Origin: Arion vulgaris
Lineage: Eukaryota; Mollusca; Gastropoda; Stylommatophora; Arionidae
Length of the DNA: 64,000 bases
Direction of reading: 5' to 3'
Assembly: GCA_020796225.1 (NCBI GenBank)
Contig: CM036754.1
Coordinates: 13,469,867-13,533,866, forward strand
In this document: piece by piece, positions 8,001-35,000 of the stretch
Layout: each line of letters starts with the position of its first letter
How positions within the stretch are numbered: the stretch's first letter is position 1
Translations under genes and position numbers: made by a program
The notes under the pieces: generated by a model
Told to the model about the DNA's origin: nothing
Seen by the model: the letters and a program-made list of their open reading frames with translations, nothing else
Databases searched by the model: none

Positions 8001-11000
8001 GTATATACATTTTCTTATAACGTCTTTTTTGGCAGCAGAATAGTACGGACTATAACGGACGAGTACGAACTATCGCGGACTGTCACGGATAATCACGGAC
8101 GAGTACGGACTATCACGGATGAGCACGAACTGACACGGACGAGCTTGGAATAAATGTTCTTTCTGCTCGCTATGTACACTCACAGTTTAAGATAGTGTAT
8201 GCATTTTATTTTTAAACTGTTCTAATGAATTTTGCCCAGGCAGCGGCTTTCCAGCCTGCTCTTCTCGATTTGAACTGCCAAGGGTTCTTTTACGTGCTCA
8301 AATTGAACACAAGACCTATGTTTTATCGTCCGTCTTCGATAGGGCTCGGAACTCGATCTAACCTACACTGAGATCAGGGATCTCTGGAAAAATATCCATA
8401 TGGCTACACGAGAGAGCGAACTTGGTAGCTTTGGCACGAGAGACAAGCACCTAACTTCTACACCCCCCGAGACTCCGAGTGTACGTTTAATCTGTCATCT
8501 CTATCTCTCTATCTCTCTCTCTTATCTCTCTCTCTTATCTCTCTCTCTCTCTCTCTTATCCCCCATCTCCCCTCTCTCTCTCTCTCTCTCTCTCTCTTAA
8601 CAACACCTGCCTTGTATTTTTGTTTGCACATTTCTTCATTGCTGTAGAAGTGTTCTTTGGCGTGTGGCCAGTTTTAACGAGATACAAGTTTTGACACTAC
8701 CAACCGGAGATGCTTAGTGTAGTAGGCTTTAAGTGGGTGTAACCACGTGATCACAATGAGAAGATGAATCATAAATTCAAATTTAGTCATCGACTGTGTT
8801 TAGTGTGATAATACAGTGAAAAGAGAGACATTTTGGTTATTGGTTACTGAGCTGACGCCATAGCACTTCTAGCAGACCCATAGGTGCTCAGTCCCCCTCC
8901 CCTCCCCAAACAGATGTCGAAGCAAACGGATGGTTCCTGTGGCTCGCTGGTTAAACACACTTCTCTCTCTCTGGCCATCAAGCATCCAGCTCTATTTGTA
9001 CAACGAGTCATTTCAAACTCCCTAAATAGCTAGATCGATTCAACGTCAATTTTAGTGTCGTCATCCAACAGTAGATCGCCAAGGGACCGAAGAACATCCC
9101 AGTTAGCCATCCTCAATTTCCCTACAATTGATCCTTGCGATGAAAGCATGTCCGCTCTCTCGTTGCCTCGAACACCCGCATGACCAGGATAGTAGATCCT
9201 CGTGAGTCACTGGAGGTTGGAAACCTCTATAGACGAAATCCATGCATACTGCAACCTGACATTCTGACAAGCATCGACTGAGAGTCAGAAACAACACGAG
9301 CCCCAGTAAACGGAGACCCAGAGAGCCAATTTAGGACAGCAGTAGCGGCCTCAACCTTCATCCCATACTGGAAGTAGTTGTCATGTATGATCCATTTTGT
9401 TCTGCAACAACTCTACCATGCGAGCTAGCCAAGAAACTTCAGCCTGATACACACTAGTCCCATCGGTACAAATAACAACATCAGCTGCTTAATTGTGAGT
9501 TCAGCCGTCATTTTGCTACAATCTCTGAACTTCTCTACCAAGGGTAACGATGACGTTGCGGTAGCAACAACTGAACCAAAATCGTTAAATGATCGATGAT
9601 CGAACACAGACATAGACTTTCTTGGGATCAATTTTCTGTTTCCGTCTTTCACTGAAACCTGATTTTCTGCTCTATATGTTTGATTGATTTCACATCATAT
9701 CAGTAGTGTAATTGTTAAGGTCACGTATCATTTGGAGGCGCCTCAATAATCGATATATCATGAAGATATATAGTAATTAATTGTTGAATTTGATCAATAA
9801 TTTTTAAGATAGTAAGGGAGATAAAAATATCTTTTTTTTTTTTTTTTTCGTGTGTGGTAGAGTTATCTTCCCTTTAAAAATTATAGTACATATAACACGT
9901 ATTGACATAATAACATATAACAAAACGCTAGACATATATATAAAATTTAATGGAAGCTTATGGATGAGTTGAATGATTCAGAGAATCATAGATACAACAG
10001 AGGTACAACATAGATACACATATACAGACATAGTGAGAACATAGGTACAACATTTATATATAGTAATACAGTCATCTCTATGTATCCGCTAAAGTATTCA
10101 CTGAAAAGTCAAGTGGAATATCCACCAGTTCTGGAGACTGGACAGGTGTTTTCAAAGGGCGTACGGACAAGTCCAGTGGGGTGTCATCTGGTTCATAGGT
10201 CTGTGAAACTAACTGGCGACGGTTATACCGCCGAAGTCGACCTCTTAATTCCTTTATAGATAAATATATCAACTCCTCCTTGGTCACACTTAGATCTATT
10301 ATTGTGTATAGATGACTATACAATAAACTTTCGAATGTTTCAACTACACATGGATGAGCCAACTGGTTTCCTAAACCGGCCACACAGCCAGTGCAGTAAG
10401 ACGTAAACTCCATTGTCATGGCCCTCCACAAACGTGTTCTAAGGGCATTGCTTAGCTCTCTGCGTGAACCCATTTCTGTAAAATAGCTGTAATAGAAGAA
10501 GAGATGTTATCAAAGATATAAGTAGTGTCAAACATTTATAACTAGACATAGCTAGAGATGGATCCTAGGTGGAAACATCCCTTTACAGCCCTTATCGCCG
10601 GACCAACTGGTAGTGGTAAAACTGTTTTTGTACACAAATTCATGCAAGAACTTATGTCTATGGTCGACCCTCCACCAGAGGAGATTATATATTGCTATGG
10701 TGAGTGGCAAAGCATCTACGAAACTATGAGCGGTATTCAATTTATCCAGGGTTTGCCCGATATGGACCAGTGGATGGGTGATAAGAGGCGTCTGATTGTT
10801 ATAGATGATCTGATGGCTGAAACAGACGACCGAGTAACTAAGCTGTTTACTAAAGGTAGTCACCATCGAAATATTAGCGTTATATATATTGTACAAAACC
10901 TATTTGGAAAAAATAAAGAACAACGAACCATAAGTCTTAATGCCCACTACCTAGTACTATTCAAAAATTCCCGTGATGGATCGCAGATTACTAATCTGGC

Positions 11001-14000
11001 CAAACAAATGTACCCTGGGCGCGTATCATATCTACAAGAAAGTTTTAAAGATGCGACATCACCACCTCATGGTTATTTGCTAGTGGATCTTCGACAGGAC
11101 ACACCAGAGCAGTTGAGATTACGCACCAATATCTTTCCACAGGAAACTCAGGTCGTATATGTCCCCAAATAACATCATGTCGGAGAAGATGAAGCAACAA
11201 GCGGAAATGCTGCGATTCTTGAGGGCGGCCAAACCACCGGCGATCAAGGCCGTTATAAAAACAGCGTCACCGGAACTCGTACGAACCTTATGCGAATGCT
11301 GTCACAACGTGTTAAAAGGGAATGTTCCACTTACACATGTTCAGAAGAGACGAATGCAGCGCTATAAAAACAGTCTTAGAGCGATCACACGAAAGAAACT
11401 ATCGATCAAAAAGCGGAAACAGATCTTACAACAAGGTGGATTTATAGGGGCCTTATTGGGTCCAGTGTTAAATGTGCTGAAAGGAGTCCTAGGACTATGA
11501 TGGCTAAGAAAATGATATTAATTGATCCCCGTCTTTTAGACCAACCGAAACAATATTTACCGCCCGATATTGTCAATGACAACCTACGCGAGCTAGATAT
11601 ACATATGCAACAAATCTTGGATAGAGAAGATATATTGCCACGCGACAAAGCTAGAATGTATCAACAAGTTTTGCATCGCTATATGCAACGGCTCGACCAG
11701 CACAGAAACAAACCGATAGGACATGTGGACATCAAAACAACACAACCGACCCAACCGATCGAGGAACCAGTGATACAACCAACACCAATACTTAAAGAAG
11801 CAGACGAGGAAAGGCCGACCACAATTGAGACAAAGAGTCAAAAGAAGGTCGATGCTAGTATAATACAGACTACCCCAGCGTACTCACTCAGGGGGGAAAA
11901 GAAGACTAAAATTCCAACACCAACTTGGGATAAATGGCCAAAGGTGTGAATGCGTCGTTAAAAAAAACAATACTACAATCCAAAACAACCAGGGTCTTAT
12001 GGCGGTGCCGGTGCATTGCACCGTAGTACTAAAATCAATCCTAAAGTAATCAAAGAGTGGTTGAGCCAGCAAGATACGTACACTCTACACAAACCAATTC
12101 GATACCGCTTTAAACGGCGACCCGTTATTGCAGGCGGGCCGTACCAACAATATCAAGCTGATCTAATAGATATGAGAGCTGTTAGAAAATACAACGATGG
12201 ATTTTCTTATCTGGTGACCTGTATTGATGTCTTTAGTAAATATGCCTGGGCCATCCCGATCAAGACAAAAACTGGAAAAACCTTGGTCGAAGTTATGAGT
12301 CACATATTTACCACTCGTAAACCAATAAATTTTCAAACTGACAAAGGCTCGGAATTTAAGAACAAGACATTTTTAAAGTTTCTTAACAACGAGGGTGTAC
12401 ATTTCTTTACTACAGAAAACGAAGATATAAAAGCCGGTATAGTTGAGAGGTTTAATCGTACATTAAAAGAAAAAATGTGGCGATACTTTACGAAAACAAA
12501 TGAGCTTCGATATGTGGACGTACTAGATCGATTGCTACACAATTATAACCACTCATATCACCGAAGCATAGGAATGGCTCCAGCGCAGGTGACTATTAAT
12601 AATCAAGAAGAAGTGTGGAATACACTATATTCAGCAGCTGACGTCATCGGCAGACAACGCTATAGAGAAGGGGACACAATCAGACTTCGGCAAGCCAGAC
12701 ATGTATTTAAAAAAGGTTATACACCGTCGTGGACCGAAGAAATATTTACAATCAGCCGCGTAAATAATACAATACCGATCACGTATCGAGTAAAAGATAA
12801 AGCGGGTAATGAACTGTTAGGTACATTTTACGCGGAAGAAATTCAAAAAGTTGGAGACAAACAGCTGTATAGAATCGAAACTATTATACAAGAACGCCGG
12901 GGTGTCCATGGAAATGTAGAGTATTTAGTGAAATGGTTTTCCTATCCGTCGTCATTCAACAGCTGGATATCAGCCAAACACATATCACGTTATGAAGACT
13001 AGTGATATGGAAATAGAAGAAGAAGCTAGCGTGGATACACCCGTCTTTGAGACAAACGTAGAAACATGCGTGGGGCCTAGACAATATTTCGGGAACCTTC
13101 TTCCACGCCCCGACATAGTTTTCATTTGTCAAATGATCGTTATATATTTTGTGATTGGTGTCTCACTATTTAATCTAACATACAGCAGTGCAGACGGACC
13201 AGACGGCAAAATTTGGATCGCGTTAATGAGCAGTTGTCTTGGTTACATGCTTCCTAATCCTAAACTAGAAAAACAAAAATGAGTTTCTATATAACACTAC
13301 CAAGTAATGCCTCTTTGGGTAGCTATCCCAATAACACGGCCGGTAATTTCTATGTAAAACTAGCGCAAACAATTGAGCTAAGTTCGCAATACGAAGTTGG
13401 TTTGGCGGAAATTCAGTTTCCAAATACCTACTATAACGTGCTAGACGATGACGTATGGATACAGTACATACCGCCAACCATAGTAACAACAGACCCGCCC
13501 CAAACAGAATCACCTCAGTTGAACACCGTTAAGCCAACCATACGACTTGTATTACCACCGGGTCTGTACACCGTGCCAGACACCTTTATCACTGATCTGA
13601 ATACCCTGATTGCGGGTCTGGAGGAAGGAGACAACCCTCGAATGAGATTCTATCTTAACAAAGTAAACAAGAAACCCAGCTTCAAGCTATACGAAAAAGG
13701 AGCTGAAGTTATACTTAGCGAAATGTTACAACATATCCTCAATTTTACACACCCACGTAACAGAAAACAACCCAGTACTCTATAGTGAGGGAGAGGTAGA
13801 ACTGCATAGTGAGATAACTAATGTCTACGTCTATAGCGACATAGTCGCCGCACGACCTGTTGGAGATGTCATGGTACCCCTATTGCGAGCTGTTCCAATA
13901 GTGGACAGACGGGCTGCGTCAGTATTTCGGATGTATGACAAGCCACACTATGTACCCCTGAGTCGTTTTTCCTTCGACACCGTGGAAATACTTTTAACGA

Positions 14001-17000
14001 CCGACACAGGTAAAACTATCCCATTCATAACTGGGACAGCTATACTGACACTACACTTTCGTACTCGCCGGCACCTCGAATAGCCATGGTGAAACACGCT
14101 CCATTACAGCGAAACAATAAAATATATGAAGACTATTTCTGCCATCAGGCGGGGCACGGCATACCCGTGTTTGTCGGAGGTCGTAGTCAACGAGGGCATG
14201 GACTTGGTTTTTTTTTGGTGGAATTGGACGTGCGATTCTCCCATGGTTAAAGACAGGTGGAAAAGCCTTACTCAGAGAAGGGGTCGGTACTGGGTTGCAA
14301 GTTGCACAAGATGCTCTAGCTGGGAGGAGCATAGGAGATTCCTTTAAAGAGCACGCCAAGGGCGCGGGACAGAGGCTTCTCGCCAGCGCAGTTGATCACG
14401 TTTCAGGAAACCGAGGAGAAAACAACCAATCAGGATCCGGGATCAGAAAACGGCGAAAGGTAGCCCGCCGAGGTGAACCTTTAGTAAAAGAATAAAACGG
14501 GCTACCCAAACGAGGCATTCACACACGAAGCCCAGGAAGAGTCATAGGAGGTATTCAGATATATTTGGATAAATGGCTTTGATTCACCCCAATTCGTGCG
14601 AGTGTCTACATTCTGGGATCGATCTGTTTAGCGTACCACCGACACAAACAGCGGTCGAAGAAGGTCAGTTTGTGGAGATACACCCACTGGCGTCCCTAGC
14701 AGCAAATGCCCCAATTGAGTTTGCAATCTCTGGTAACAGCGAAGAGTATCTAGACTTATTCAATACTTTTTTGCATGTAAGAGCCAAAATAACGTTGGAC
14801 AACGGTGACAAAATACCACCTAATGCGGATGTAGCACCTGTCAACTACTACCTACACAGTCTATTCTCACAGGTCGATGTGTCGCTGAACGATACATTAA
14901 TTACGCCGAGTGAGAATACATATGGATACAGAGCGTATATTGAAGCAGTATTGAATTATGGTGAAGATGCTAAAAAAGGACATCTAACCTCGGGCTTTTT
15001 TTTACAAAGACACAGCAAATTTCCTAGATGAAACAACTGGAGACGCCAATAAGGGCTTACAGACACGTAGAAACTTAACAGCTGTTAGTCAAGAACTCGA
15101 TATGATGGGGCGATTACATTCAGATATATTTGTACAAGATCGATATATGCTGAATGGCGTTGACTTGAAAATCAGATTGACCCCATCTAAGGACACCTTC
15201 AATTTGATGGCGCATGACCCAACCATTAAGTATAAATCAGTGATAACATACGCAGTAATGGTGCTTAGAAAAGTAAAACTAAATCCGGCGATATCTTTAG
15301 CGCATGAGAAAGCCCTGATCCGGGAAATGCCAAGTATCCACTCAAGAGAGTTGGCCTAAAGACGTTTGTTATTCCAAAGGGAATGTTGTCGTATATGCAA
15401 GATAATTTATTCCTAAGTCAGACTCCTACACGCCTAGTTATTGGTATAATTAATTCAACCGCATTTAACGGGTCCTATAAATATAACCCGTTTAACTTTC
15501 AACATTGTGGTCTGACATATTTGAATGTTACAGTCGCCGGTCGAGTCGCCACTGGGAAACCAATTTCGATAGATTATGAAAACAACCGATACGTGCGAGC
15601 CTTTTTGGTACCAATCTAGCCATGGGTCTAATTGGTAAAGACGCTGGTAACGACCTAGACTACAGACAATTTAAAAATGGGTACAGTCTATATGCAGTAG
15701 ATTTGAGTCCCAGCCTCTTAGACGGGGATCAATTCGAGATGGCAAAGTCTGGACCAATCTCAATAGAACTTAAATTCGCTGCCGACACGTCGGAACCCTT
15801 ACAAGTTGTGGTATACGCCGAAAACGATTCGATATTGGAAATAAGTAAGTCGAGACAAGTTATTACCGACTATATTGCGTAAAATGATTCAAACACTTTG
15901 GCGTATCCTTACAGGACGTATCACCAGCAACCACAGTTTTATTCACTATTGTTTGATTTACTAGGCACCACATATAAGCCCAGTAGTATACCCTTGCTTG
16001 CTGAACAAAATGAATACCCATGAAATACGAGACATACTCAGGGGTGATATATATGTCAGACGAATACTATTCAGGGTCTTGGCTCGTGATCAATTACCCA
16101 GACGCATTGACCCAACTAAAGCCTGCGGGTTTGTCATAAATACTGACTGCAGTAACCAGCCGGGCTCTCACTGGATTGGTCTGTATTACAACGGAATTGG
16201 TACCTTTGAATACTTTGATTCGTTTGGATTACCGCCAATTAATACGGATATTACCAACTTTATCACGCGTAATTCCAATAGACAATGTGTATACAACCCA
16301 CGTATATTACAGGATGTGCTTAGCAATGCTTGTGGTCTATACGCTATATATTTCATCTTGATGAAAGCTCGCGGTGGAACAATGCAACGCGTACTAATGC
16401 CATTCTCGGCACCACCGCGCAGACAACACGTCAATGATCGAATTGTTCTCCGTTTGATAAAACCATATATGACCAAAACGGGTCTGCATACTTTACAATA
16501 ACTACTCAATAAAAGTCTGGACACCTTTAACCTAACTGACCAATTAAAACAAGTATGAACATGTTTTACCTCTCATCTGGGTATATAAGTAGCCAGCTCA
16601 GTCAGACCGACCTGCAGTTGTATTCCAGGTTCACCAAGATGCAGACATTTTCTGAAAATACTGTTTACGTAAGCCGAGGCAATGAAATGATTAAACCGCT
16701 GGCCACTGGTCTGAAAGCCGTTTCTGTAAACTGTTATAGAAGGCTGCCTATACTTCACATTCGGAAGTACTTTGGTGAAACACATCTAAAGTTTCCAACC
16801 AAATATGGAATAACGTTATCATTGTCAGAATTTCAAAACCTTCTAGCCTTACAGAACGAAGTCCTAGCCGAATTTGAGCGGCTAACCCCTATTGAAGAAC
16901 TACCCAACTACTCTCTGCGTGATACAACGAACTACTGTCCTAATGGCGCCTCATATGAGTATGCGCCGAGCTACGCACCACTTGCTAGTTGTTACAGTAC

Positions 17001-17254
17001 AACACCACCGGGCCTCGATTCTAAAAACTTTAGACCCGTTGATGAGACTAGTCCACTTCAGCAGACACTTCAAACTGACATCAGACTACCAGCCAAGTTG
17101 AAGCAACAGAGAAAAAAACGACGAGGAAGAATAGACACCTTATAATATGTTTAATGTTGTTAAAGTAAATAAAGGATGAAAAAAAAAAAAAAAAAAATTT
17201 TTATTTTTTTATTTTTACATTCATTTCGTCCTAAAATATTAACTGTTTAAGCCC

Positions 17255-17302
<48 letters not shown>

Positions 17303-20300
17303 TTTGTATGTAATTTAATGTCTTTATGTTATGTACTGTGTATGTCTATAGGGCATGTACTGTACTGTATGAAACATTGATCACCCTAACAGAAGACCGA
17401 CTGACTCTAATTGGTTTAAATCAGCTTCAAATATTGCTTTCATTTTATTATCTGAAAACAGTGGTAGTTTTTTGTGTTCAAATTCTGAATGGATGAATTT
17501 GAAATATGGTGTTACAAAATCAATACACGACTTTAAGTCTAGAAATACTACATCGGCTAGTTGACAAATGAATTCTTGATTGGCATAATGTAAAAACAGG
17601 ATTGAACTCGCTAAAATACGATAATTAAACAGAGTGCTCACTATATCGATTAAGACTATGTCGGCCATATAACGTATTTGACATTGCTTGTCAAGTGAAA
17701 ATAAGTCGGGTTGCATCATATTGGCCAACTCAATGTAAATATTGACATAAACTATCGTGGTGTGTCTTTGTAATCGGTAGTCGATGGTTTGCAAAATTTT
17801 CTTTTCAATTTGTTTGATAATTTTCGGACTATAAACGTTATCGTAGATGTGAAGCATATCTCTTAGAAAGACACGATCGCCGTCTTCAAATTTACTTGCG
17901 ATCCAAAAGCAACTTGGAACGATTAGATTCAAATCATTATTACATCGGCAGTTTTTACTACAAAAGCGATCAAAGACATCCATTGTCAAATGAAAGGTCT
18001 CATTATTAAATCTATAATCATTGCAGAGAGCCGAGACATATACTATTATTTTACTTCTTTTCATTTGTGGTACAAGTTTAGTTTGTACCAGTTGTCGGCT
18101 ATACAAGTGAGTTCGATCATTCATTGTTTCTAATACTTTTTCTATTTCATGAAGTTTGGCCATTTTACCTCTTTGTTCTTTCTAATGTTAGATGATGATT
18201 GTAGTGAGACAAGGTTAGAAAACAACTGCAGTGGTACAACGCGGTCGTCTTTTGTTAACGTTAGAAGATGAAATTGTAAACGCAACAATAGGGAATATAT
18301 ATTATATGTCGCATCTAAGCTTATCGTGAGGTCAAGGGTGTTCTTTGTACATCAAATAATTATTTTAAATTACGCCTCGAATTATATAATTAGGATACAG
18401 ACGTTAAACAATCACCCAAAATTATGGTGTCTACATCGGCAGACACTATGATTTAAGTGCTTACTAGAATTCCGAGTTGTCACAGGCGAAAATTATTATT
18501 CATTTAACCGTTTCGAATTTTCGTGTCATACAATTTAATAATAAGTCAAAATTACCAACTCGATACGCAAAATTAGCGCTTACAACAACATAATTTGTAC
18601 CCGCAAAATTATCTACCAGTGCCAAAGTAATTGTAATCTATCGATGAATCACTAGGAAGTTAGTTTGGTCAGAGCCCGCAAATCAATCACTAGCTGTCAG
18701 CGTCTGTAGCTTTTTTAGTCCACGTGTTATGCATCGATACCCTATTATACATCTCATTTGCATTCATCCGCTCAAGAATCGATCGGCTGTATTCTTTGGC
18801 TTAAATTAAAGAGTTATATTACCAATAGTTCATTCCGTAAGTTTTGCACTGAGCAGAGAACATCTTGCCGTTTTTACTGGAACGCTCTATATTAAAAGGT
18901 ATGTATATTGTATATTTGTACTAACAATATTCTCTTGTTTAATTTGCGATATTAAAGTTATATATATATTGTTACATTCATTGAAGAATAATAAAAGAGA
19001 CTTGTCTAAGGTTGTTTTATTAGTATAAGTCTTCTAATTTACATGTATGTTATATTACACATATAATATGCCTCGCACGCCTAGACTGACTATGCGTCAT
19101 ATCAGTTGTACAAGACTAACATGTAGTGGTTATCTCTCTCACTCTCTCTCTCTCTCTCAGATGAGATATATATATATATATATCACGGACTCTCACACGT
19201 TAATAGTATAGTATGAATACAGATCAAATTGTAGGTTTTATTACATTTTATTTAAATTTCATTAAATGTATTATATATTTATAAATACGTTCAGGTAAAG
19301 TGTCTTGGTAATATCCACACAGAGTTTTCCAACCACCATTCTCTAAGATCCATTCGGATAACATGTCAGTTAGATAACAGGCGACCGCCTCTGCATAATC
19401 TTCTTCAAGTATTCTGATCTCTGTATCTACGTTAGAAGCACAGGACACGATATATTTCCCGATTCGACTGGCTAGAGCAAAAATAATTAAAATTCTACCG
19501 CAGTTCAAGTCTTCTCTTGGTACCAGCACTTGATTGGCAATAGTAACAAAAGTCTGATAACCAAATTCAGGTTGTATGGTTGTAACTAAGTCATCGAAGA
19601 AACGACTGTGTCTCTTTGCAAGATCCCTCACTGACCTATCGAGTGTTTTAGCATATATATTTGTTGTTTGTCTAGAAGTAAGTATAAAAAACGTCAATAT
19701 CCTCGTCTCATTTTTAACACTTATCAAATCCATTTTGTCTTCCAAAGATGTCTGTCGACCAACCACCAGTACGACAAAGAAATAGATGTCCAGATTGCGA
19801 TCGTGTTTATAGACATGTTAGATCTTTAAATCGACACAGGGCTAGTGCACATGGCGGAATACACTACACATGTGCTATCTGCCGATTTGACTACCGGCGG
19901 GAAGACAATCTACAGCGCCATATGATTAAAGAACACACACAAGCACGGATATCACGATTATTATGTGCTCACCCTACGACCTCATCAACTACCCTACCTC
20001 CAATATTCACGCCACGCTCGCATGGATTACGAGCATCACGGAAACGAACTATAGACTCAATATTAGATATACAACATTCTCCCGGTAACCCTGTTTCGCC
20101 TGTACGAAAAAGAACTATAAACCCTGCAGAAACCAGTTCGACGTCACAAGGATTATCATCAATCCACACTGAAACTGACTCGTTACATACATTGCCACCA
20201 GATGTACATAAAATATATACAGATAACTGGCAAGCCATCAAGACACATTCAAAAATAAACAAATTCATGTCTACCTACACCTATTATCACAGTCCACACA

Positions 20301-23300
20301 TGGAACACCCAATAGCTTGGGGTGATCGCCTAGACAAGCTGTTTAAAAACCAGACCAATCGTTTTAAAATTAATTACAGTCATCACACTATTCTCAGACA
20401 TAAGGAAACAAATGACCTTAGATTCTTTCATGCCTCCGCTAATAATGCCTGTGTTTTAGACAAACCAATCTTAATTAATAATAGGACCGAATTTACCGCA
20501 TTCCTTAAAACGTTACACGACAGCGATATTCTAAATTATGCCATGAACCAAAGACAACATTCTAGATATTCTGTTAATTCCATTCCTGCGACAAGCTTTT
20601 ATCTCTATAAAATTCCAAACTATCCGATAGGTTGCTGTATCGAACTGCCAGCGCACATAGTGTGCAATAAAAATATTACGAAATTTCAAGTCGACTCACA
20701 CTCCAGACCATATACAGATAATCTGTGTTTTTTTTAGATGTCTAGCTGTCCATCGGGGCGCTCCAGTTAAAAATGTTAGGCGACCCACACGGAAGCTTCT
20801 GATTCAGTGGCAAGTATACCACAACTTAGCTTCTTTAATATCTTTCCCAGGTGTTAATCTAATTGAAATTCCAGCATTAGAAACATGTTTCGGTATTAAT
20901 ATAGATGTCTTTGAATACGATGATAAGCAGGCATTGACCCCAAAACTAAGGGGTAGTGATAGCTATAAAGATACCATGCGCATCTTATTATATAACAACC
21001 ATTTCATGTACATACCAAATATTGATAAAGCCGCAAACGCGTTTTCGTGTCCGAAATGCGGAAAGCTCTGGCCTAAATATTGCTGGTTGACCCGACATGA
21101 AAAGACGTGTTTATTTGGTAAACAGCGAGAGCAGTATAAGGGAGGCGTGTATAGTACACCGGAGACTATTTGGGAATCAATTGATTCACATGGGATAGCT
21201 GTTGATACGAGTTATATCTATCCCTATCGAGCGACATTTGATTTCGAATGTTATTTTGACCACTCAAATCTACCTAGCTGCGGCAAAGTCACCACATATT
21301 TAGCCAAACATGTCCCTCTGTCATGTTCTGTAGCGTCTAATATTCCCGGGGTGGAGGCACCTGTATGTTTCATAACATCGGGTGATCCACAAGATTTGGT
21401 AGATCGAATGCTCGAGCACCTGTGTTACATCTCTGATATTGGTTACAAGCTCTTGTGTGCGCAGTTTGCTAGTATCTATACCCAATTAACCGAGTTGGGT
21501 GATGCTATGCTGTTGGCAAGATTTGATGCTTATTTACGTGAACTTCCCGTTATAGGATTCAATTCGGGAAAATATGACCTAAACCTGATACTACCCTATC
21601 TCGTTACTTACTTTCTCAATCTCGACGTAGATTCCCCTTTTAATTTTGTTGTTAAAAGGAATCAGAATTTTATGTGTATAGGGACAAAGAAGCTTAGATG
21701 GCTTGATATCGGGTCCTATCTGGCTCCCTCATTTAATTATTCCAAATATCTAGCTGCCTATAAGGTAGAGGAGACAAAGGGTTTTTTCTGTTATGAGTAT
21801 ATAGATGCTCTATGTAAATTAAATGAAAAGAAGTTACCGAGTCATGGTGAATTCTTTTCCAAACTTAAAAATACAAATATCTCTGATATAGAGTACAAAC
21901 AGTGTCAACAAGTGTGGTTAGATAATAAAATGACCACGCTAAGAGATTTTCTTATTTGGTACAATAATAAGGATGTAGTCCCATTTTTAGCTGCTTTAGA
22001 AAAACAGGTTAGTTTTTATGCTCAGCTAAAGATTGATATGTTTAAAGATGCCATATCGGTCCCTGGAATTACGTTAAAATATTTATTTAAAACTCTTGAT
22101 AAAGAGGTCGCCTTTTCCTTGTGTTCCAATCGAGAGCAAGATCTGCATAAGACACTTAGAGCTAATATTGTGGGTGGGCCTTCTATTATATTTCATAGAT
22201 ATCATGAAAAAGGAAAAACTTGTATTAGGGGCAATAAGGTGGTCCAGTGTATCAAAGGGTACGATGCCAATGCTTTATATCTATGGGCCTTGATGCAGAA
22301 AATGCCTACAGACTTTGCAGTTACAAGAAAACCTGAGGATGGCTTCAAACCACACCGCGCTAATTATTACATCATCCAGTGTCGGGAATGGTTAACTTGG
22401 GTGGCCACTTACATAGTATTGAGACACAATTCCCAAAGGGAGCGAGATGCGTTTGGGTTCAAGACATATTAGAGTAGATGGGTGGGATAAACAAAATCGA
22501 ACCGTGTATCAGTTTCACGGTTGTTTGTTTCATGGACATCCCAACTGTCCACTTACTCAAGGTAGAGATATTAACCGAATAAATAACAAACCCTTAGCTG
22601 ACCTGTATAAAAAGACAGTAGATATTCGCGAGTACTTGACTAATGAGGTTAAGGTTTCTGTCATCGAAATGTGGGAATGTGAATGGCAAGATCTGAAAAA
22701 AAATGATCAATCAGTCAGAAATTTTCTGTTGGCTAGACGCCCAAAACGTTTCAAATGTAAGTACCCTATCACCGAGGCAAAACTAGTTGCCGGTGTTTTA
22801 GATGAAACCCTATTTGGGTTGGTAGAGTGTGACATTCATGTCCCAGACAGTTTAAAAGAGTATTTTTCAGAGATGACTCCAATCTTTAAAAATATTGACG
22901 TCACAAGAGCTGATATAGGTGAATTTATGTGCGATTACGCCGTCAAACACAAACTTTTGTCGGGTAGTCGTCGAACTTTAATCGGTAGTTATCGAGGTGA
23001 AAAATTTTACTAGCGACTCCGTTGTTAAAATGGTATCTCAAACATGGTTTAATTGTTAGCAAAATATATCGTGTGATTGAATACCAGCCCGTCTCTTGTT
23101 TCAAACAATTTGGAGATAGTGTATCAGCTGCACGTCGCGCTGGGGATAGAGACGTGGGGTCCTCCATAACCAGTGAGACCATGAAACTTTTAGGAAACGC
23201 TGCCTATGGTAAGACCTTGACGAATAAGGCCATGCACTTAGACGTATCATACTGTCGGGGGGCTGAGACAGGGGTCTTAATAAATAACCCCCTATTTAAA

Positions 23301-24413
23301 CATATGACGCAAATAGGTGAGGATATTTATGCGGTAGAAATGTTTAAAAAGAATACTATTTGGGATCTTCCGTTACAGATAGGCTTTTTGTTTATCAATA
23401 CACAAAATTACGAATGTTAGAGTTTTATTACGATTTTCTAGATAGGTTTGTAGATCGTTCCGATTTCCAATTGTGTGAAATGGACACTGATAGCTTATAC
23501 TTAGCCCTTAGCGCAGCGACATTAGTTGAGGTTGTTAAGCCCCACCTACGTAGTGAGTTTTATCAGGTATATAATAACTGGTTTCCAGCAGAAACTTGTT
23601 TACAGCATCACTCAACCTTTATTAGTAGCCAGGGACCTTAGTTTCGATTGCCCGAGTTGTCAGGCAAGACAATTATATGAGCGAAGAACTCCAGGCCTTT
23701 TCAAGTTAGAATATGAAGGATCTGGAATGGTCTCTTTGTGTAGTAAAACATACCACTGCTTCGGGGACTACAATAAAACTAGCACCAAGGGTTTGACAAA
23801 ACAACACAATAATTTAGACAAAAATATATTTTTAGATGTACTCGTTACACAAGAATCGCAGGGTGGAAAGAATGTTGGTTTCAGAACACAAGCTGGGTCA
23901 ATTTACACATATGAACAACACAGAAACTCTCTCTCATATTTTTATATCAAACGACAGCTACAATCAGATAATGTCACTACGATACCTCTATCTATATAAA
24001 ACAATTTATATTAGAGTTACGCACAAAGTGTTATATATATATATCATTACACTGCCCTATTGTATTTCCATATTTGTTGTATCTCATAACACAACTTATG
24101 CACAGATATATACTTGGTGAATCAATAAATTTATATATATGTCTAGCGTTTTGTTATATGTTATTATGTTAATACGTGTTATATGTACTATAATTTTTAA
24201 AGGGAAGATAACTCTACCACACACGAAAAAAAAAAAAAAAAAAATATTTTTATCTCCCCTTACTATCTTAAAAATTATTGATCAAATTCAACCAATTAAT
24301 TACTATATATCTTCATGATATATCGATTATTGGAGGCGGCGCCTCCAAATGATACGTGACCTTAACCAATTACACTACTCATATCTCTCTGTCTCTCTCT
24401 CTCTCTGTCTCTC

Positions 24414-26037: not shown

Positions 26038-29000
26038 TTCTCCATTTGAAATATCCGACTGTCCCCGTGTGTTCTAATCCACCTTTTTTCATGATATGCA
26101 AAAAACAAATAACGGTTGTTTCTTTCCGATGTCACTCCCAGAGCGCTCTGACCGATTGCAGTACATTAATCTTTAATATTTATAGCTGTGTGGTTATCAA
26201 CATTATTTGCTTAAACCATGTTATCTCTGTTACCTCTATAAATGTTGATATGTATTTGTGTGGTTTTTTTTATTGCCCGTTTAATATGTCAGCATTGGTT
26301 GTGTGTAGAAATGAAGAACTTTTGACTTTCATAGAGAGCGATTTGTTACGTATAATGGTCTTTAAATGTCTGAAAGAGTTGGCTTTGCATGGTTTCTTTT
26401 ATTCTTTCTCTCATTTACATCAACATAGTTGTTGTTTTCAGAGTTACATATAGTATATATTTAAAACAGTAACAGTAAAAAAATATGTTTTATTTTTGTG
26501 CTAAGGCATGCAGGTGTAAGGGGAAATGAACGCGCTGATAGGCTTGCAGGTATGGCTTGCAGGTATGGCTTGCAGGTATGGCTTGCAGGTATGGCTTGCA
26601 GGTATGGCTTGCAGGTATGGCTTGCAGGTATGGCTTGCAGGTATGGCTTGCAGGTATGGCTTGCAGGTATGGCTGCTGTAAAAAGTAGGCGAGCAATGGA
26701 CCAGGCTGATATTATAAATTCCCTAAGAGAGATAAAACGAGTACATGATTCAAGTAATAGTGGTGAATCTACAACACTAACAAGACTGCAAGAACTCCAA
26801 TTCAAATGTGGTGTAGCTAGACAAGAACACTATGCTGGTAGTCAAAGAAGAATAGTAAACCAAAAAAGAACCGGTGTTGTTAGTCACCACACACTGAGAC
26901 ATACTGAGGAGGAGATCGGAGCACGTTATAGACTAATTGGTTCGACGTGCAGTGATGATGATCCGATGACTAAACTAAAACAGTAACAAGTAAATGTGTG
27001 CATTAAAACATTTTTATTAGACCGCGTCTTCTGATTTACCTTTACTTATGCATACTCTACATCAGTGGTAGGCTATTTATGCATACTCTACATCAGTGGT
27101 AGACAACCCACAGCCAACTGGCTGTAACCGATCCGACAACAAGTTTGGACCGGACTGAGATTATTCGGACATTACTATACTCTCCGGTATTTGAGTTTAA
27201 AGAAATGAATTTAGTAAAAGCATACGTCGGCCCCAAGACATACATACAGACACACACAAACCCGCGCGCACACGCTTGCACATACACGCACACGCTTGCA
27301 CACACATGCACACATAGATCCCTATTTTTTAAATCAATGTAAAAATTATATTTAATAATGAGTTGTTAAACATTGCCTGCGAAAAGTTACCAACAACACA
27401 AGAAAAGACAGAATCACTAACATCAGCATAAGAAAGAAAGTTGGCACAAAACCGTGCTTGAATTACATTGAGAGACAAAGAATGAAGTGGTTTGGCCCTT
27501 AATAAGAATGCATCCAAACTCCACAGTATACAGTCTTCTACAACAGAACATCGGAAAGAAGGCAAGAGGAAGACCACGGAAAAGATGGTTAGATGGCGTA
27601 GCAGAATCCTGTGAAAAAGCAAAGATAACAATCACACAAGCCACAGAACAGCGCAAGACAAAAACAGAAAACCACGACACTGGGCAACAACCCGGTGGCA
27701 GTGTGACGACAAAAGAAGAAGAAGAAACATTGCTCTCTAAAAATAATTTCTTTATCTCTAATCTACCAGTAAAAGTAACACAGGTGTTCCCGTAGAAACA
27801 CGTATTGGGGGAGAACTCGGCCGAGATGCTGCAGAAAGTGTCGTTCGTAGTTTTAGATAACGAAAAACTTAGGAAACAGAGCTACTATGTACGATTGGAA
27901 ATCCTTTACGTGATCAAAATAGTGATGTTGAATTTATACACAGATATATATATAGATATATACAGATATATACAGATTATATACAGATATTGCGCATCGC
28001 AGTTATCACAATCTTGATCAGACATTGCGCACCGTAGTTAGCACAATCTTGATCAGGCATTGCGCATCGCAGTTATCACAATCTTGATCAGGCATTGCGC
28101 ATCGCAGTTATCACAATCTTGATCAGGCATTGCGCATCGCAGTTAGCCAGACATTCCCGATGTAGACAAGCTTGTTCAGAAATTCTGTTATAGAATTGGT
28201 AAGCTACTCATCTATAATTTCTTGTTAATTTCTCTTTATTTCTCCCGCTTTCCATCCTCTCTCTCTTCCATCCCCTCTCTCTCTCTCTCTCGCTCTCTCT
28301 CTCATTCCCGTTCTCTACTTTCACCTCAATAATATAATTTATACTTATTAGCTTGCAAGTTATCTAATTTACAGGGGGGGAGAGGGTCTTGTGGCTAAGT
28401 TGTTAAGCCCTCGCCTCGAGTTCCGACGGTTGTGAGTTCGAATCCTGACCACGACGTTCTGTTCACGAGTGTATTTTTTCAGAGACCCTAGTATTGTTGC
28501 CGGAGCTACGGAGTTCGTGCCTTTTGCAATACTCTCTTCAGATGGCATGCCATTTATGCATACGAGTACTGAGCCATATGGGGTAAAACCCAGTGCACTG
28601 AAGTCAATCCTTTGGCTATCTCTTTTTATCTCCATCTCTAATTTATAGAAGGTTTTCCAGAAGTGAGAGTATCTGGCCTTCTGCATTCTCACATTTTCAA
28701 GAGGTCCGTCATGAATTATGCCCTATGGTATGAAAACGGCGGGTGCCTTTACTTATTTTAAATTTGAATATAGAAATTGCATATTTTATTTTGCAGACAA
28801 CAAAAATATAAAAGATGTTTGCGGGATAGAAAACATAGTAGCAGTAATTCAGTAATAGTTTCAATAAGTAATAGCCGTCCATCGCAAGCGATGATGACAA
28901 CAATCTCAGACGTGTACTGTTGCACCTCTCTGGTGTGTGCGGAGGTGACTGTAGAGTCCAATCCTAGTACAGAATCCCCGACCACAGGTGGGGCATACAT

Positions 29001-32000
29001 GATCAAGGTTAGACATGTGCGTGTTGTGTGCTCTGTCTTTCGCGCTGCTCGTTTTCTCTGTGACTCAACAATACGATGATTCTCAGCTATTCGGGCTCCT
29101 CCTTTGTTGCCACAGCGCCACATTTGGCGATCTTGCGCAAGGATTCCCAGCACGTATTGTCTATATCGAAGCATTTCAGAGACACTTTAAGAGTGTCTTT
29201 AAAGCGTTTTTTTGTCCACCAGCTAAACGTCTGCCCCCTTCAAACTCGCCATACATCAACTATTTTGGGATGCGTTTATCAGGCATTCGAGCAACGTGAC
29301 CGACCCATCTCAGTTGGGCCTTCTGCAACAGGGTGTTGACGCTTGGGATCTTTGCTCTTGTGAAGACTTCGCTGTCTGGAATTTTGTCCTGCCAGTTTAT
29401 TTTTAGTATTCTGCGTAGACAGCTTGTGTGGAAATGGTTTAATTTTCTTGCGTGTCTGCTATACACTGTCCATGTCTCGCTTGCGTACAGCAGCGTGGTT
29501 AGCACTATGGCCTGGTAAACTTTCAGCTTTGTGACTATGCTTATCCCCTTCCGTTCCCACACAGTGACACGTAACCTTCCGAACGCAGCACTGGCTTTGG
29601 ATATCCTATTGTGGACCTCAGAATCTATGTTTGCCGATCTGGATAGGAGGCTGCCAAGATAAGCAAAGTTGTCCGTTGACTGGAGACGCTGGTGTTTAAT
29701 GTTGATGACTGGATCGTAATACTGTTCTCTAGGGGCGGGCTGAAACATGACCTCTGTTTTTGGTGTTAATGGTGAGGCCAAACCTATCACAGGCCATTGA
29801 GAACTTGTCCATGTAAGTCTGCATTTCTTCCACAGAGTTGGTAGCGAGGGCACAGTCATCAGCAAACAACAGGTTTGAGATAGTTGATTCTTTTACCTTG
29901 GTGGAGGATTTTAACCTCCGAAGATTGAATAGATTACCGTCTGTCCTGTATCTAATCTTTACCCCATGTTCGTCGCCTTCAATAGGTACTGAACAAATGA
30001 ATATCTATTATTCCTGTTCGTGTTTTCCATTTCACAGACTTCATTCTTACAAAATACGTTCAGAAGTATAAGTACTCGCAAAAAGGGACATTCTTTTACA
30101 TGCCAAATCTCCAAGCAATGGCAGACGAACTTCCAAGAAAATACCTAGATAACCCTAACAGTAATATGGAAGACAACAAAATAAAAACAAGATCCGCTGG
30201 TGAGGCCCCCACCCCACCGGCTAGGAGGATCTTATAAAAACTCTTTTGAAGATCACAACGTGGTGAATAGTACTGGGAAATACTGTTGGTAAAATTATTC
30301 TAAAAGATTGTCCCTGTTTCATTTTCAGGCTAGTACTCTCTTATAAGTCATGAAGCTCTAGTTCAGTTTTTCACGCTGCTTCTTGAGTATGTAAATAGCT
30401 TGCATTGAACAAAGTCTCCACCCCTGGATTAAAAGCCTTTCTAAGCCGGGCACACCCTTTCAGAATAAGAACAAGTCTTATTTTGGTTAGATTTTCCTTC
30501 TTCTTTCTTCCTTTTCTCTAATCTTATTTTACCTCACATCGTCAGGATAAGATGAGATAATACAAACATGTAATTTATTCTACACAGGGGATTGTTGGCT
30601 ACTAGCTGCTGTTGCCTCACTTACCTGTAATGAGAAAATCTTCAATTTTGTGGTGGATCCAAACCAGTCATTCACCAGCAACTATTGTGGTATCTTCAGG
30701 TTAGACATTTTACAAACTTTTAAATTCTTCCTGATATTTTTGAAACCTTTGCTGTTTGAATAAAGTAACATGTGGTCACACCCAGTCGATCTAACAACTA
30801 AGTTTTGGGGAAACCTGACAGACCTGAAGCTGATTGCCAAGTTTGTGGTCCACCTTAAACTAAGCGCACATTGCCCGTCTGCCCAGCGTGTTCGTAGCGC
30901 GTTGGACTACGGGTGACTATCCCTCTGTGTGTGCGGGTTCAATTCCGCGGGATGGCAGAAAAAGCCACAGATTCCCCAGATTTACGGTGTTCGTGGCACC
31001 GAACCGAAGGGTTACGATGTCCATGGCACCGAGCCGAAGAGCTGAAAAGCTCAAGTGCTTCTGGATGGAAAAAAAAACAACAATAAGTACACGACCAGCG
31101 ATGGTTGAAGGAGGATACCTGACAGACTTAAAGCTCAATGTCCAGTTTATGGTCCACAGTAAACTAAGTTGAAACAGACCAGAAATTGCATTAATGACAA
31201 GTAAAATTAATCATATATTCAACATAGTTGTCGAAAGTGAAGCTGACAACACTCTGTGCTAGTGGTCGCCAAGAATTTCTGCAGAGTTGTCGAAAGTGAA
31301 GCTAACAACACTCTGTGCTAGTGGTCGCCAAGAATTTCTGCAGAGTTGTCGAAAGTGAAGCTGACAACACTCTGTGCTAGTGGCCGCCAAGAATTTCTGC
31401 AGAGTTGTCGAAAGTGAAGCTGACAACACTCTGTGCTAGTGGCCACAAGAATTTCAGCAGAGTTGTGGAAAGTGAAGCTGACAACACTCTGTGCTAGTGG
31501 CCACAAGAATTTCAGCAGAGTTGTCGAAAGTGAAGCTGACAACACTCTGTGCTAGTGGCCGCAAAGAATTTCTGCAGAGTTGTCGAAAGTGAAGCTGACA
31601 ACACTCTGTGCTAGTGGCCACCAAGAATTTCAGCAGAGTTGTCAAAAGTGAAGCTGACAACACTGTGCTAGTGGCCGCAAGAATTTCTGCAGAGTTGTCG
31701 AAAGTGAAGCTGACAACACTCTGTGCTAGTGGCCACCAAGAATTTCAGCAGAGTTGTCAAAAGTGAAGCTGACAACACTGTGCTAGTGGCCGCAAGAATT
31801 TCTGGGGTTCAAGGCCAGTTTATCCCCACCAAAAAATTTAAGACTACAAGAAACCCTGATCCTTTACTTTAGGATCTCTCTCTCAAATCACTGCCCAGAC
31901 CGATGTACCAGATTTAAGTGGAAATTCTTTTCATGTGGAAATCTGATTCATGCAGCCTTAGTATTGGCATCTTCTTCTTCTTCTTTGCGTTCGTTCTTTA

Positions 32001-35000
32001 CGACCAATTTTAATCACTCTTTGTGATATGTTTGATCTTTGCCAAGAACGTGTATACGTTGCACATTGGTTTGGTAGGCCTTTAAACGCATATACTTCTA
32101 CAAGTTTAAGACACATGCATCCGATTTCAGCCAAACCTCCTTAGTCGCCTCTTACGACATGCAGGTAACAGTGGTTCTATTCTTTACACTCCAATTTGGG
32201 CCCCATTAACCACTTGGGCGACTTTGGGATCTAAATTACAATGAACCAAGATATGTAAATCTATTCACATTTTATATTTTCTCACCGCTTATAAAAGTAT
32301 CGTTTATCGTGCTTGTTTTATCTGTTGTCATTATTTTTATTTTTGCAACATGAAGATATCAATTTTGTTTTTTTTATCTTGCATGCCTATTATTAATTTT
32401 TCAATCCCTTTTTTGCGTTGTTAACAACAGTAACACTGTATCATCAGCATATCTTAGTTCAGGTATTTCTCTTCCTTCGATTATAAAAGGATTGTATTGT
32501 TCTTCTCCACTATCTTCTGTAACATTCCTCATGTTGTGTTTAACATTTATGCTGATGGCTCTTTAGCATATATTATTTTCCACTTCCATTATCTGTGTGT
32601 TCAAGTTTCCATAATGTCCTGCTACCATCGTCATCTTTTGGTCATCTTCTGTCTCATCTTCCAGGAACCATGCACTCCATTCTTGTTATCTCTAAACAAA
32701 TGGAACATTTAATGTCACTAAAATATTTCAGTTTCAGAGACATGATATTGTTTATATCACATAACTTGATATCAGCATAAACTGAATATGATGAATAAAA
32801 GAAATTTATCAACCGAATATAGGCAATGAAGTGGAAAATCAGGGACGCCATACAAATGATGCATATTACCAGCTCAAATAGAAAAGAGCAAGTTTTACTT
32901 TTTAGACTGCACAGGCCACAGCAAACTGAGGTACCTTCATTTCAACAAGCTAAACATATGAATTTCTGATGAATCTAATTGTCGGACTGACAAAATGACA
33001 TCTGAACATTTTTACAAAGAAGTCCTGAATATGATGAGCAAAGAAGACCATTTCATGATAAGTTATTTTGGAGATCTTGACAACTTTAGGTGAACCACTG
33101 TTTTCATTAAACTTCTTCAACTTGATATCAGAGAGGGAACATCCCTCGCCATTCAGGCAAGACTTCAGAAATACGTATAATTTAGACCCCAAGTAAAGGA
33201 TAAAAAACTCCAGAAGTCCAACACCGTACCGTGTGAACACCTAGAATTGTTGACCTAAGATATCAAACACCAGAATTTCCTCAACGTGAGGTTATTAGCA
33301 CAGTGTGTTATCAATTTCAATATTAGAGATATACTGTTTGAATGAGTTGTACTATTGTGTCTACAAGGTTCAACTTCTGGCATCAGGGAGACTGGCAGGA
33401 AGTTGTTGTAGATGACAGACTGCCAACTTACCGTAATCAGCTCGTGTTCATGCACTCCACGGAGAAAAGTGAGTTCTGGAGTGCGTTGTTGGAGAAGGCA
33501 TATGCCAAGTAAGTTTATTCTCATAGTATTCACCAAGTAAGTCTGTTCACATCTTCTCTTCTTCTCTAACTTCCCTTGAAGCATAATGCATCAACACATT
33601 TCCTCCAACTAGATTTGTCTTGGGCAAGCCATATTAGTTCATTGCAGGTCTTTCCAGCCTCTTCTCTTTCTCTGTCTACAATTCGTCTCCATGTCTCTCT
33701 AGGTTGCTCCCTATCTCTCTTGCCTCCTGGATTCCATTTCAAAGCCACATATGGGTGCCTTCTTCTTTCTTCTTCTTCTTTTGTCGTCACACTGCTACCG
33801 GGTTGTTGCCTAGTGTCATGGTTTTCTTTTTTGTCTTGTGCTGTTCTGGTGGTTTGGGTGATTGTTATTTTTGCTCTTTCACACGATTCTGCTACGCCAT
33901 CTAACCATCTTTTTCGTGGTCTTCCTCTTGCCTTCTTTCCGATGTTCTGTTGTAGAAGACTGTATACTGTGGAGTTTGGATGCATTCTTATTAAGTGGCC
34001 AAACCACTTCATTCTTTTTTTTCTCAATGTAATTCAAGCAAGGTTCATATAGGTGTTTGGTCTTCTAAATTCTCAATATATGTCCCAACCACTTCCACCT
34101 CCTACGTTTTATTTCCTCATTGATATTGTTGACGCCTGTGCATCGAGTGAACACATATTAAATAAGTCTGTTCTGAAAACATCTTCCAGTTAAGTCTGTT
34201 CTCACATCTTTCACGAATAATGGTGCCAAATTAAATATTGATTTTCATGAGAATCATTGCCTGGCAACATTCTAATTAGATAATAACATTATCATTAATC
34301 AATAAAAAGACATTGTGCAGCGCAACTGTTGTTACACATGATATGTCATGACTTGTGTTACAGAACTTCACTCGTGCAATAATACTGATTGCAAATAGTA
34401 AACAAAAATGTGTCATGTGTATGCTACTCATACTCTAATCATGATCAGTACGCAGACAATGAGTGGAATTTCTACTATATTACTCTAGTGTTAAAATGAT
34501 CACATTCAACAATGTGTATGCTACTCAAACTCTAATCATGATCAGTACGCAGACAATGAGTGGAATTTCTACTATATTACTCTAGTGTTAAAATGATCAC
34601 ATTCAACAATGTGTATGCTACTCATACTCTAATCATGATCAGTACGCAGACAATGAGGGGAATTTCTACCAAATTACTCTAGTGTTAAAATGATCACATT
34701 CAGTTTTTGTCCCTGGACATGGAGGAGTTAAGAGCAATGAATGCACGGACATACTGGCTGACTTGGCAACGGTGTCAGAAGGAAAAGCATTGGGCCATCC
34801 TGACATACTGAATGCACTGACAGACTCCGCTCAAGTAGCGAATTTTCAAGGTTGTAAATTGTAGTCACTGGCAAAAATACAGAAGATGGGAGTTTAGCTT
34901 GGTGCAGCCCATAAGGACAACCACAAATTATATACAAAATGATTGTGCAACCAACACAGAACTGGTGGGTTTTAAAAAAAAGTCATTTGAAACCAAGAAT

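What the first reader, a model, noticed from the sequence alone, without database searches (positions are those of the whole stretch)
17381..19733. Polinton carrying both a cyclin and a Bcl-2 homologue
Two adjacent intact minus-strand genes encode a two-fold cyclin with the key CDK-contact Lys and Glu positions, and a Bcl-2 protein with BH3-like, BH1 and BH2 regions. A viral cyclin together with a viral Bcl-2 is a hallmark of some gammaherpesviruses. Finding both in one integrating Polinton/adintovirus suggests an independently captured programme that drives the cell cycle while blocking cell death. I know of no described Polinton with this pair, but I could not search for one.
Basis: partly seen in the sequence, partly recalled or inferred. 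Interest (0 to 1): 0.95.

Follow-up and report, generated by a model that had tools for sequence, protein, structure and literature searches.

The report
Polinton with cyclin and Bcl-2 genes
A virus-like mobile element with matching ends carries, among its own genes, unbroken genes for a cyclin and a Bcl-2 relative, a pair that would likely let it push an infected (probably animal) cell into copying DNA while blocking that cell's suicide.

Summary
A 14,678-bp Polinton/Maverick (9702-24379) has ~250-bp terminal inverted repeats, (AGT)2//(ACT)2 ends and a 6-bp target duplication CATATC. It encodes packaging ATPase, chromodomain integrase, capsid-like genes, adenain-type protease and PolB. Inside lie an intact 260-aa cyclin (Cyclin_N 3.8e-23) and an intact 161-aa Bcl-2 protein (PF00452 2.4e-10), both minus strand. 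The cyclin is nearest cyclin E (84% bootstrap, five proteins), unlike the D-type herpesvirus cyclins, which supports independent capture. It keeps the CDK-contact Lys and Glu, but its docking patch MRAIL reads KRSKI. The Bcl-2 protein is nearest Bcl-xL/Bcl-2 and lacks the BH3 Gly-Asp core and an obvious membrane tail. A left-end ORF carries PLDLSVR, an adenovirus-E1A-like motif. Likely role: S-phase entry plus apoptosis block; untested. PolB, capsid and penton-like frames are broken in this copy. Seven related loci lack the pair; none is shown to be complete. Anti-apoptotic and candidate oncogenes are already reported in adintoviruses (PMC11071296); ten searches of an open-access library, several with capped lists, showed no cyclin-bearing Polinton. 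Host, other copies and expression were not tested. Interest 0.62.

The parts
9702..9952 (+). left terminal inverted repeat, begins AGTAGT
   Evidence: alignment
24123..24379 (-). right terminal inverted repeat, ends ACTACT
   Evidence: alignment
9696..9701 (.). 6-bp target-site duplication CATATC, left
24380..24385 (.). 6-bp target-site duplication CATATC, right
10081..10473 (-). 131-aa left-end ORF with PLDLSVR and PLDFSV (CtBP-binding-like motifs, as in adenovirus E1A; motif meaning recalled)
   Evidence: PxDLS in 0.525% of 20000 residue shuffles; ORF this long in 1 of 2000 resamplings; no Pfam match at E<=0.1
10558..11172 (+). packaging ATPase
   Evidence: Pox_A32 6.4e-6; 4399 relatives at E<=1e-3, best 83% identity
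12016..13002 (+). retrovirus-like integrase with C-terminal chromodomain
   Evidence: rve 1.8e-12, Chromo 1.8e-8
13279..14080 (+). penton-like gene in two frames (name inferred from position)
   Evidence: tblastn with the L002 homologue, two frame pieces
14573..15879 (+). major-capsid-like gene in four frame pieces (broken)
   Evidence: pieces match the 479-aa L002 ORF; name inferred from synteny and recalled likeness, no Pfam hit
15998..16501 (+). adenain-type protease
   Evidence: Peptidase_C5 9.4e-5
16555..17145 (+). PC4-like ORF, 196 aa
   Evidence: PC4 3.5e-5, 23.7 bits, just under the cut-off of 25
17381..18163 (-). cyclin, E-like, 260 aa, intact
   Evidence: Cyclin_N 3.8e-23; cyclin E1 1.7e-19 over residues 6-226; tree
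18029..18061 (-). cyclin residues 35-45: stretch where MRAIL..W..E of cellular cyclins reads KRSKI..Y..A
   Evidence: alignments
17804..17893 (-). cyclin residues K91 to E120, the CDK-contact Lys and Glu positions
   Evidence: alignments; role recalled
19248..19733 (-). Bcl-2 family protein, 161 aa, intact
   Evidence: PF00452 2.4e-10; Bcl-xL 1.1e-12; TIGR00865 1.3e-15, under its cut-off
19748..23996 (+). family-B DNA polymerase in several frame pieces (broken), N-terminal C2H2 fingers; first ATG 14 nt from the Bcl-2 ATG, divergent
   Evidence: pieces match the 1409-aa L002 PolB, itself DNA_pol_B_2 2.9e-9; fingers 4e-9; the pieces themselves have no polymerase hit in Pfam

Best explanation
This is an integrated Polinton/Maverick whose accessory genes include an E-like cyclin and a Bcl-2 protein, likely captured from a host and likely serving to force the cell into S phase while delaying its death. 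Shown: the element, its ends, the two intact uninterrupted genes and their family membership. Inferred: the cyclin, with CDK-contact residues kept, little sequence outside the fold, and a docking patch changed from MRAIL to KRSKI, would activate a CDK2-like kinase while being hard to restrain by Cip/Kip-type inhibitors; the Bcl-2 protein would use its BH1/BH2 groove to hold pro-death BH3 partners, without a BH3 core of its own that could be turned pro-death. Together they would supply nucleotides and replication factors for the element and buy time for virion assembly. A left-end ORF with a CtBP-like PLDLSVR motif may be a third helper.
For: Element bounded by TIRs, (AGT)2//(ACT)2 ends and a 6-bp TSD (the end motif and flanking accessory regions are described for vertebrate Mavericks in PMC8097293, passages). 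Family matches. Cyclin grouped with cyclin E1 against A2, B1 and D1 at 84% of 200 bootstraps on 147 columns. Both genes are uninterrupted. They sit in the stretch after the protease where relative L003 carries other cellular-type genes, TBP and dUTPase. Bcl-2 ATG lies 14 nt from the first PolB ATG and an AATAAA overlaps its stop region, a compact layout. Gammaherpesvirus cyclins resist CDK inhibitors, and MHV68 cyclin and M11 are shown together in the mutant map (PMC3271081 passages). HVS ORF16, an anti-apoptotic vBcl-2, also lacks the BH3 core (PMC2376094 passages).
Against: No function tested. PolB, capsid-like and penton-like genes are in broken frames, so this copy may be dead; intactness of the pair is then weak evidence for use. 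No second Polinton with the pair: 0 of 7 related loci, and no relative of any of the seven queries tried in IMG/VR. The pair's stretch is more AT-rich (about 33% GC) than the other intact genes (39-45%), so a later insertion is not excluded. Cyclin_C gave no match. Cyclin identity to E1 is only 25.8%, the tree branch is long and the tree holds five proteins. Sequence alone does not settle pro- versus anti-death. The MRAIL register is the aligners' choice.
Confidence: 0.6

Rival explanations
1. The cyclin and Bcl-2 genes are host-derived DNA that entered this particular copy after integration (retrocopies or a nested insertion) and have no role in the element's life cycle.
For: Stretch 17.0-19.5 kb is AT-richer (33-34% GC) than the rest; absent from 7 of 7 related loci, none shown complete; homopolymer and (CA)n tracts near 17.2 kb; a 25-nt AT-rich imperfect repeat at 17201 and 18958 around the cyclin (84% identity).
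Against: No clear flanking duplication or sense poly(A) tail for either gene stood out; two unrelated genes on one strand in the slot where L003 has other accessory genes; Bcl-2 start fits within 14 nt of the PolB start; flanking host DNA is 40-43% GC, not 33%.
Confidence: 0.17
2. The genes are the element's own but do something else: the cyclin serves a transcriptional or other CDK and the Bcl-2 protein is pro-death or acts on autophagy, for example to aid release.
For: Only 25.8% identity to cyclin E1 and 17.5-23.4% to the other three; docking patch and membrane tail not kept; functions of Bcl-2 folds are diverse (general knowledge).
Against: Best matches are cyclin E1 and Bcl-xL/Bcl-2 (the 60 rows shown, of 122, are all Bcl-xL or Bcl-2 constructs, the other 62 were not seen), and the BH3 Gly-Asp core is missing.
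Confidence: 0.15
3. The pair is a common, undescribed accessory set in a large adintovirus clade and this is an ordinary member.
For: The ATPase has 4399 relatives at E<=1e-3, without readable context (in 116 of the 120 rows listed the longest contig is under 10 kb); adintoviruses are reported with anti-apoptotic and candidate oncogenes.
Against: In the same protein database the cyclin found no relative and the Bcl-2 protein found only one, cellular-looking.
Confidence: 0.08

Closest known systems
Adintoviruses / animal Polintons (Mavericks), including reports of anti-apoptotic and candidate oncogenes (PMC11071296; PMC8097293)
   Same: Integrase with chromodomain, packaging ATPase, adenain-type protease, PolB, TIRs, (AGT)2//(ACT)2 ends, accessory regions beside the core.
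   Different: The word cyclin is in neither paper's held text (PMC11071296: 0; PMC8097293: 0 in the listing); PolB here starts with C2H2 fingers and no OTU-like domain was detected by Pfam.
Gammaherpesvirus v-cyclin plus vBcl-2 (for example MHV68 cyclin and M11)
   Same: Short cyclin and short Bcl-2 protein in one virus; a vBcl-2 without BH3 core has a precedent in HVS ORF16.
   Different: Those cyclins are D-type by sequence; this one is E-like; the virus is a herpesvirus, not an integrating Polinton.
Adenovirus E1A plus E1B-19K
   Same: S-phase driver plus Bcl-2 homologue (E1B-19K is listed as vBcl-2 in PMC2376094) in viruses with an adenain protease; the left-end ORF here carries the PLDLS motif that E1A has (recalled).
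   Different: E1A is not a cyclin and works through Rb, p300/CBP and p27 (PMC6252338 passages); no LxCxE in the 22 element frames scanned.
Walleye dermal sarcoma virus rv-cyclin
   Same: Integrating virus with a captured cyclin.
   Different: Retrovirus; D-type homologue acting with CDK8/CDK3 (PMC6252338 passages); no Bcl-2 partner known to me (recalled).
Planarian Burro giant Gypsy-like retrotransposons (PMC6431247)
   Same: Mobile element of an invertebrate with a BCL2-like motif (passages).
   Different: LTR retrotransposon polyprotein, no cyclin mentioned in the passages seen.

Membership tests
Polinton/Maverick | terminal inverted repeats, 6-bp TSD and (AGT)2//(ACT)2-type ends | tested here: met
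   end motif from PMC8097293; 6-bp TSD as a Polinton trait is recalled
Polinton/Maverick | retrovirus-like integrase | tested here: met
   rve 1.8e-12
[quoted passage not shown]
   frame pieces match L002 PolB; L002 PolB hits DNA_pol_B_2 2.9e-9; broken in this copy, no direct Pfam hit of the pieces; protein priming itself not tested
Polinton/Maverick | packaging ATPase, protease, capsid genes | tested here: met
   Pox_A32, Peptidase_C5; capsid-like pieces by synteny and similarity only
Adintoviridae (as defined in PMC11071296) | integrase with C-terminal chromodomain | tested here: met
   Chromo 1.8e-8 at residues 285-326
Adintoviridae (as defined in PMC11071296) | PolB with N-terminal OTU-like domain | tested here: inconclusive
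   N-terminal 329-aa ORF shows C2H2 fingers and no OTU hit at E<=10; an OTU-like fold beyond Pfam not tested
Adintoviridae (as defined in PMC11071296) | hexon recognisable by BLASTp from reference adintoviruses | not tested
   no reference hexon was in hand
Cyclin | N-terminal cyclin box with CDK-contact Lys and Glu | tested here: met
Cyclin | second cyclin fold | tested here: inconclusive
   no Cyclin_C match at E<=10; cyclin E1 alignment covers it; model too poor
E-type cyclin | closer to cyclin E than to A, B, D | tested here: met
   73.5 bits against 44.7 (B1), 40 (A2), 31.7 (D1); 84% bootstrap, five proteins; wider cyclin families not included
Bcl-2 family | BH1 and BH2 regions | tested here: met
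   N77-x-G-R80 and W128-ILENGG-W135 in the Bcl-xL alignment
Bcl-2 family | C-terminal membrane anchor (usual, not universal) | tested here: not met
   best 17-residue hydropathy in the last 45 residues 0.48, against 1.91 in P0001
Gammaherpesvirus v-cyclin | D-type sequence | tested here: not met

The most novel reading that the evidence does not exclude
A Polinton has, independently of herpesviruses, built a DNA-tumour-virus-like kit: an E-type cyclin freed from Cip/Kip docking, a Bcl-2 death blocker and an E1A-like left-end protein with a CtBP motif, making it a transposon-virus that carries its own transforming programme into the host germ line.
Probability: 0.3. Interest if true: 0.88.

Novelty: new variant of a known kind. 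Interest (0 to 1): 0.62.

Why it matters
If true, the cyclin-plus-Bcl-2 solution known from gammaherpesviruses arose separately in an integrating virus-transposon with a different (E-type) cyclin. That would show which two host controls a small nuclear DNA virus must break, and it raises a testable question: do integrated Polintons with such genes feed host proliferation disorders or supply hosts with new cell-cycle genes?

Tried and rejected
Whole-database search: cyclin 286 candidates, none at E<=1e-3; Bcl-2 12 candidates, one hit, P0001, 30% identity, which looks like a cellular Bcl-2 protein with a membrane tail. Seven IMG/VR scans, with integrase, cyclin, Bcl-2, capsid piece, protease, ATPase alignment and capsid alignment, gave no relative. 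The idea that the pair was carried in by a nested element was looked for by repeats and found no clear support. The sigma-70 promoter scan is irrelevant to a eukaryotic element and found no excess (14 sites against a mean of 14.3 in shuffles). PHROGs gave no informative match for either protein. A host assignment was attempted by comparing the window DNA with the seven related loci: only three matches, all within the ATPase gene, so 'mollusc' stays unproven. A selection claim from intactness was rejected: several core genes are also intact, and the two TIRs differ by six length differences of 1-3 nt and three substitutions (counted on the alignment), so some frame breaks could be sequencing errors. 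Starrett 2021 on adintoviruses was not held; its gene lists are not used. Papers whose listing counted both 'polinton' and 'cyclin' were partly checked: in PMC9952930, PMC12085832, PMC10120064 and PMC11633385 the word was 'cycling', and in PMC4202336 cyclin and Polinton are unrelated transcripts; PMC10294476, PMC8905726 and others were not opened.

Full report
WHAT IS THERE. Pfam identifies Cyclin_N at 3.8e-23 and Bcl-2 at 2.4e-10, both above the curated cut-offs; Cyclin_C is not matched. First-order resampled sequence of the same stretch never gave an ORF of either length (0 of 1000).

THE ELEMENT. Inverted repeats flank the region. Aligning the two ends gives terminal repeats at 9702-9952 and 24123-24379, starting AGTAGT and ending ACTACT, with CATATC directly duplicated outside each. 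The (AGT)2//(ACT)2 end motif, and accessory regions beside the core modules, are described for vertebrate Mavericks in PMC8097293 (passages seen). Gene content from left: minus-strand ORF, ATPase (Pox_A32 6.4e-6), two small ORFs, integrase with chromodomain (1.8e-12; 1.8e-8), a small ORF, penton-like and capsid-like frames, adenain-type protease (9.4e-5), PC4-like ORF (3.5e-5, just under its cut-off), cyclin, Bcl-2, PolB. PolB and capsid were recognised through L002, an 11.8-kb contig binned with an Escarpia laminata endosymbiont, whose 1409-aa ORF hits DNA_pol_B_2 at 2.9e-9 and which has ATPase, integrase, penton-like, capsid-like and protease genes in the same order, but with PolB before the ATPase instead of at the other end. 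The window's PolB pieces on their own have no polymerase hit in Pfam.

STATE OF THE COPY. Against five L002 proteins the window gives 12 tblastn stretches: PolB in four and the capsid-like gene in four, in changing frames, the penton-like gene in two, integrase and protease in one each; 11 of the 12 hold no internal stop, and the last PolB stretch holds five because it runs over a further frame change. So breakage is mainly by frame change. The two TIRs differ by six length differences of 1-3 nt and three substitutions, so part of the breakage could be sequencing error; I cannot decide. Cyclin, Bcl-2, ATPase, integrase, protease and PC4-like frames are open.

THE CYCLIN. The best solved relatives are human cyclin E1 (1.7e-19, residues 6-226, both boxes), then B1 (44.7 bits), A2 (40) and D1 (31.7), among 60 rows shown of 64. 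An ML tree of five proteins, 147 columns, put it with E1 against A2, B1 and D1 at 84% of 200 bootstraps, on a long branch. Identities are 25.8% (E1), 23.4% (B1), 22.4% (A2), 17.5% (D1). K91 and E120 align with the CDK-contact Lys and Glu (role recalled). In the hydrophobic docking patch (recalled as M210, I213, L214, W217, E220 of cyclin A) the window has K35, K38, I39, Y42, A45 in the register chosen by both HMMER and MAFFT. The protein has no TPxxS phosphodegron-like motif and little sequence outside the fold. Inference: it likely activates a CDK2-like kinase and escapes Cip/Kip docking. Gammaherpesvirus cyclins are D-type in sequence, act most like A and E, and resist inhibitors (PMC3271081 passages), so the function would converge while the ancestry differs.

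THE BCL-2 PROTEIN. Best solved relatives are Bcl-xL (1.1e-12) and Bcl-2; the 60 rows shown, of 122, are all constructs of these. BH1 reads N77-C-G-R80 and BH2 W128-ILENGG-W135. The BH3-like stretch reads LDRSVRD where Bcl-xL has LREAGDE in the alignment to 7wjh. No strong membrane tail: best 17-residue hydropathy in the last 45 residues 0.48, against 1.91 for P0001. HVS ORF16, which blocks apoptosis, likewise lacks the BH3 core (PMC2376094 passages). Inference: a soluble or weakly membrane-bound pro-survival protein. Its ATG is 14 nt from the first PolB ATG on the other strand, and an AATAAA lies at its stop.

OWNERSHIP. For the element: both genes lie inside TIRs and TSD, are uninterrupted, share a strand and sit after the protease, where relative L003 carries TBP (5.7e-37) and dUTPase (4.6e-38) instead. 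Against: AT-richer stretch (about 33% GC against 39-45% for the other intact genes and the PolB N-terminal frame) and absence from the 7 relatives. Of these seven only L002, L003 and L005 reach past the protease or capsid end, L002 by only about 0.8 kb, L005 is decayed, and none of the three shows inverted repeats of 40 nt or more, so none is shown to be complete and the absence is weak. The only tblastn match of the cyclin in these loci was 14 residues at E=0.84, and Bcl-2 had none at E<=1.

THE LEFT-END ORF. 10081-10473 minus encodes 131 aa with PLDLSVR and PLDFSV. PxDLS occurs in 0.525% of 20,000 residue shuffles, two PxD[LF]S in 0 of 20,000 (the second pattern was chosen after seeing the sequence). 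An ORF this long arose in 1 of 2000 resamplings of that stretch. PLDLS is the CtBP-binding motif of adenovirus E1A (recalled). It has no Pfam match and in the related loci only two matches at E=0.27 and 0.90. No LxCxE in any of the 22 frames scanned.

LITERATURE. Ten searches of an open-access PMC library: (0 papers; 6 of 6 listed; 19 of 20; 20 of 171; 20 of 724; 20 of 79; 12 of 26; 8 of 8; 4 of 4) and 76 (30 of 59,756, ordered by number of terms held; two listed papers held all three of polinton, cyclin, bcl). No listed title or abstract start reports a Polinton or adintovirus with a cyclin. Five papers that count both words were opened at those words and are unrelated, mostly 'cycling'. Otherwise I saw listings, except passages from PMC11071296 (and its section 16), PMC6431247, PMC3271081, PMC10812802, PMC8097293, PMC6252338 and PMC2376094. 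PMC11071296 says most mammal-associated adintoviruses appear to encode anti-apoptotic homologues and/or candidate oncogenes; its text holds no 'cyclin' and no 'bcl'. PMC6431247 reports a BCL2-like motif in planarian Burro retrotransposons. Most subscription papers, supplements, and Starrett 2021, were not available, so 'new' means not found here.

VERDICT. Observation confirmed; interpretation partly supported. New variant of a known kind: a Polinton with an E-like cyclin paired with a Bcl-2 protein. Function is inferred from residues and precedent, not shown. One copy, unknown host, unknown expression.

Noticed in passing
window 10081-10473 (-): Left-end ORF with PLDLSVR and PLDFSV, like the CtBP-binding motif of adenovirus E1A; in the seven related loci only matches at E=0.27 and 0.90.
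   Followed up: partly
L003:10652-12449: A Polinton contig binned with a Limnohabitans MAG carries a TATA-binding-protein gene (TBP 5.7e-37) and a dUTPase (4.6e-38) after its protease.
   Followed up: partly
L001-L007: Polinton DNA sits in bacterial MAGs of GTDB (tubeworm endosymbiont, mussel symbiont, Limnohabitans), presumably host or other eukaryotic contamination.
   Followed up: no
window 36704-37066 and 60583-60941: Three inverted-repeat pairs, 91-96% complementary, about 23.5 kb apart; only one ORF of 150 aa or more lies between them (46974-47435).
   Followed up: no
window 27491-27727 and 33766-34002: Two inverted-repeat pairs, 94% complementary, about 6 kb apart, possibly another DNA transposon.
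   Followed up: no
window 3030-3191 and 30873-31066: Interspersed repeat in opposite orientations, up to 98% complementary, SINE-like in size.
   Followed up: no
window 19731-19748: Bcl-2 and PolB start codons are divergent and only 14 nt apart, so their leaders must overlap the other gene or one starts elsewhere.
   Followed up: no
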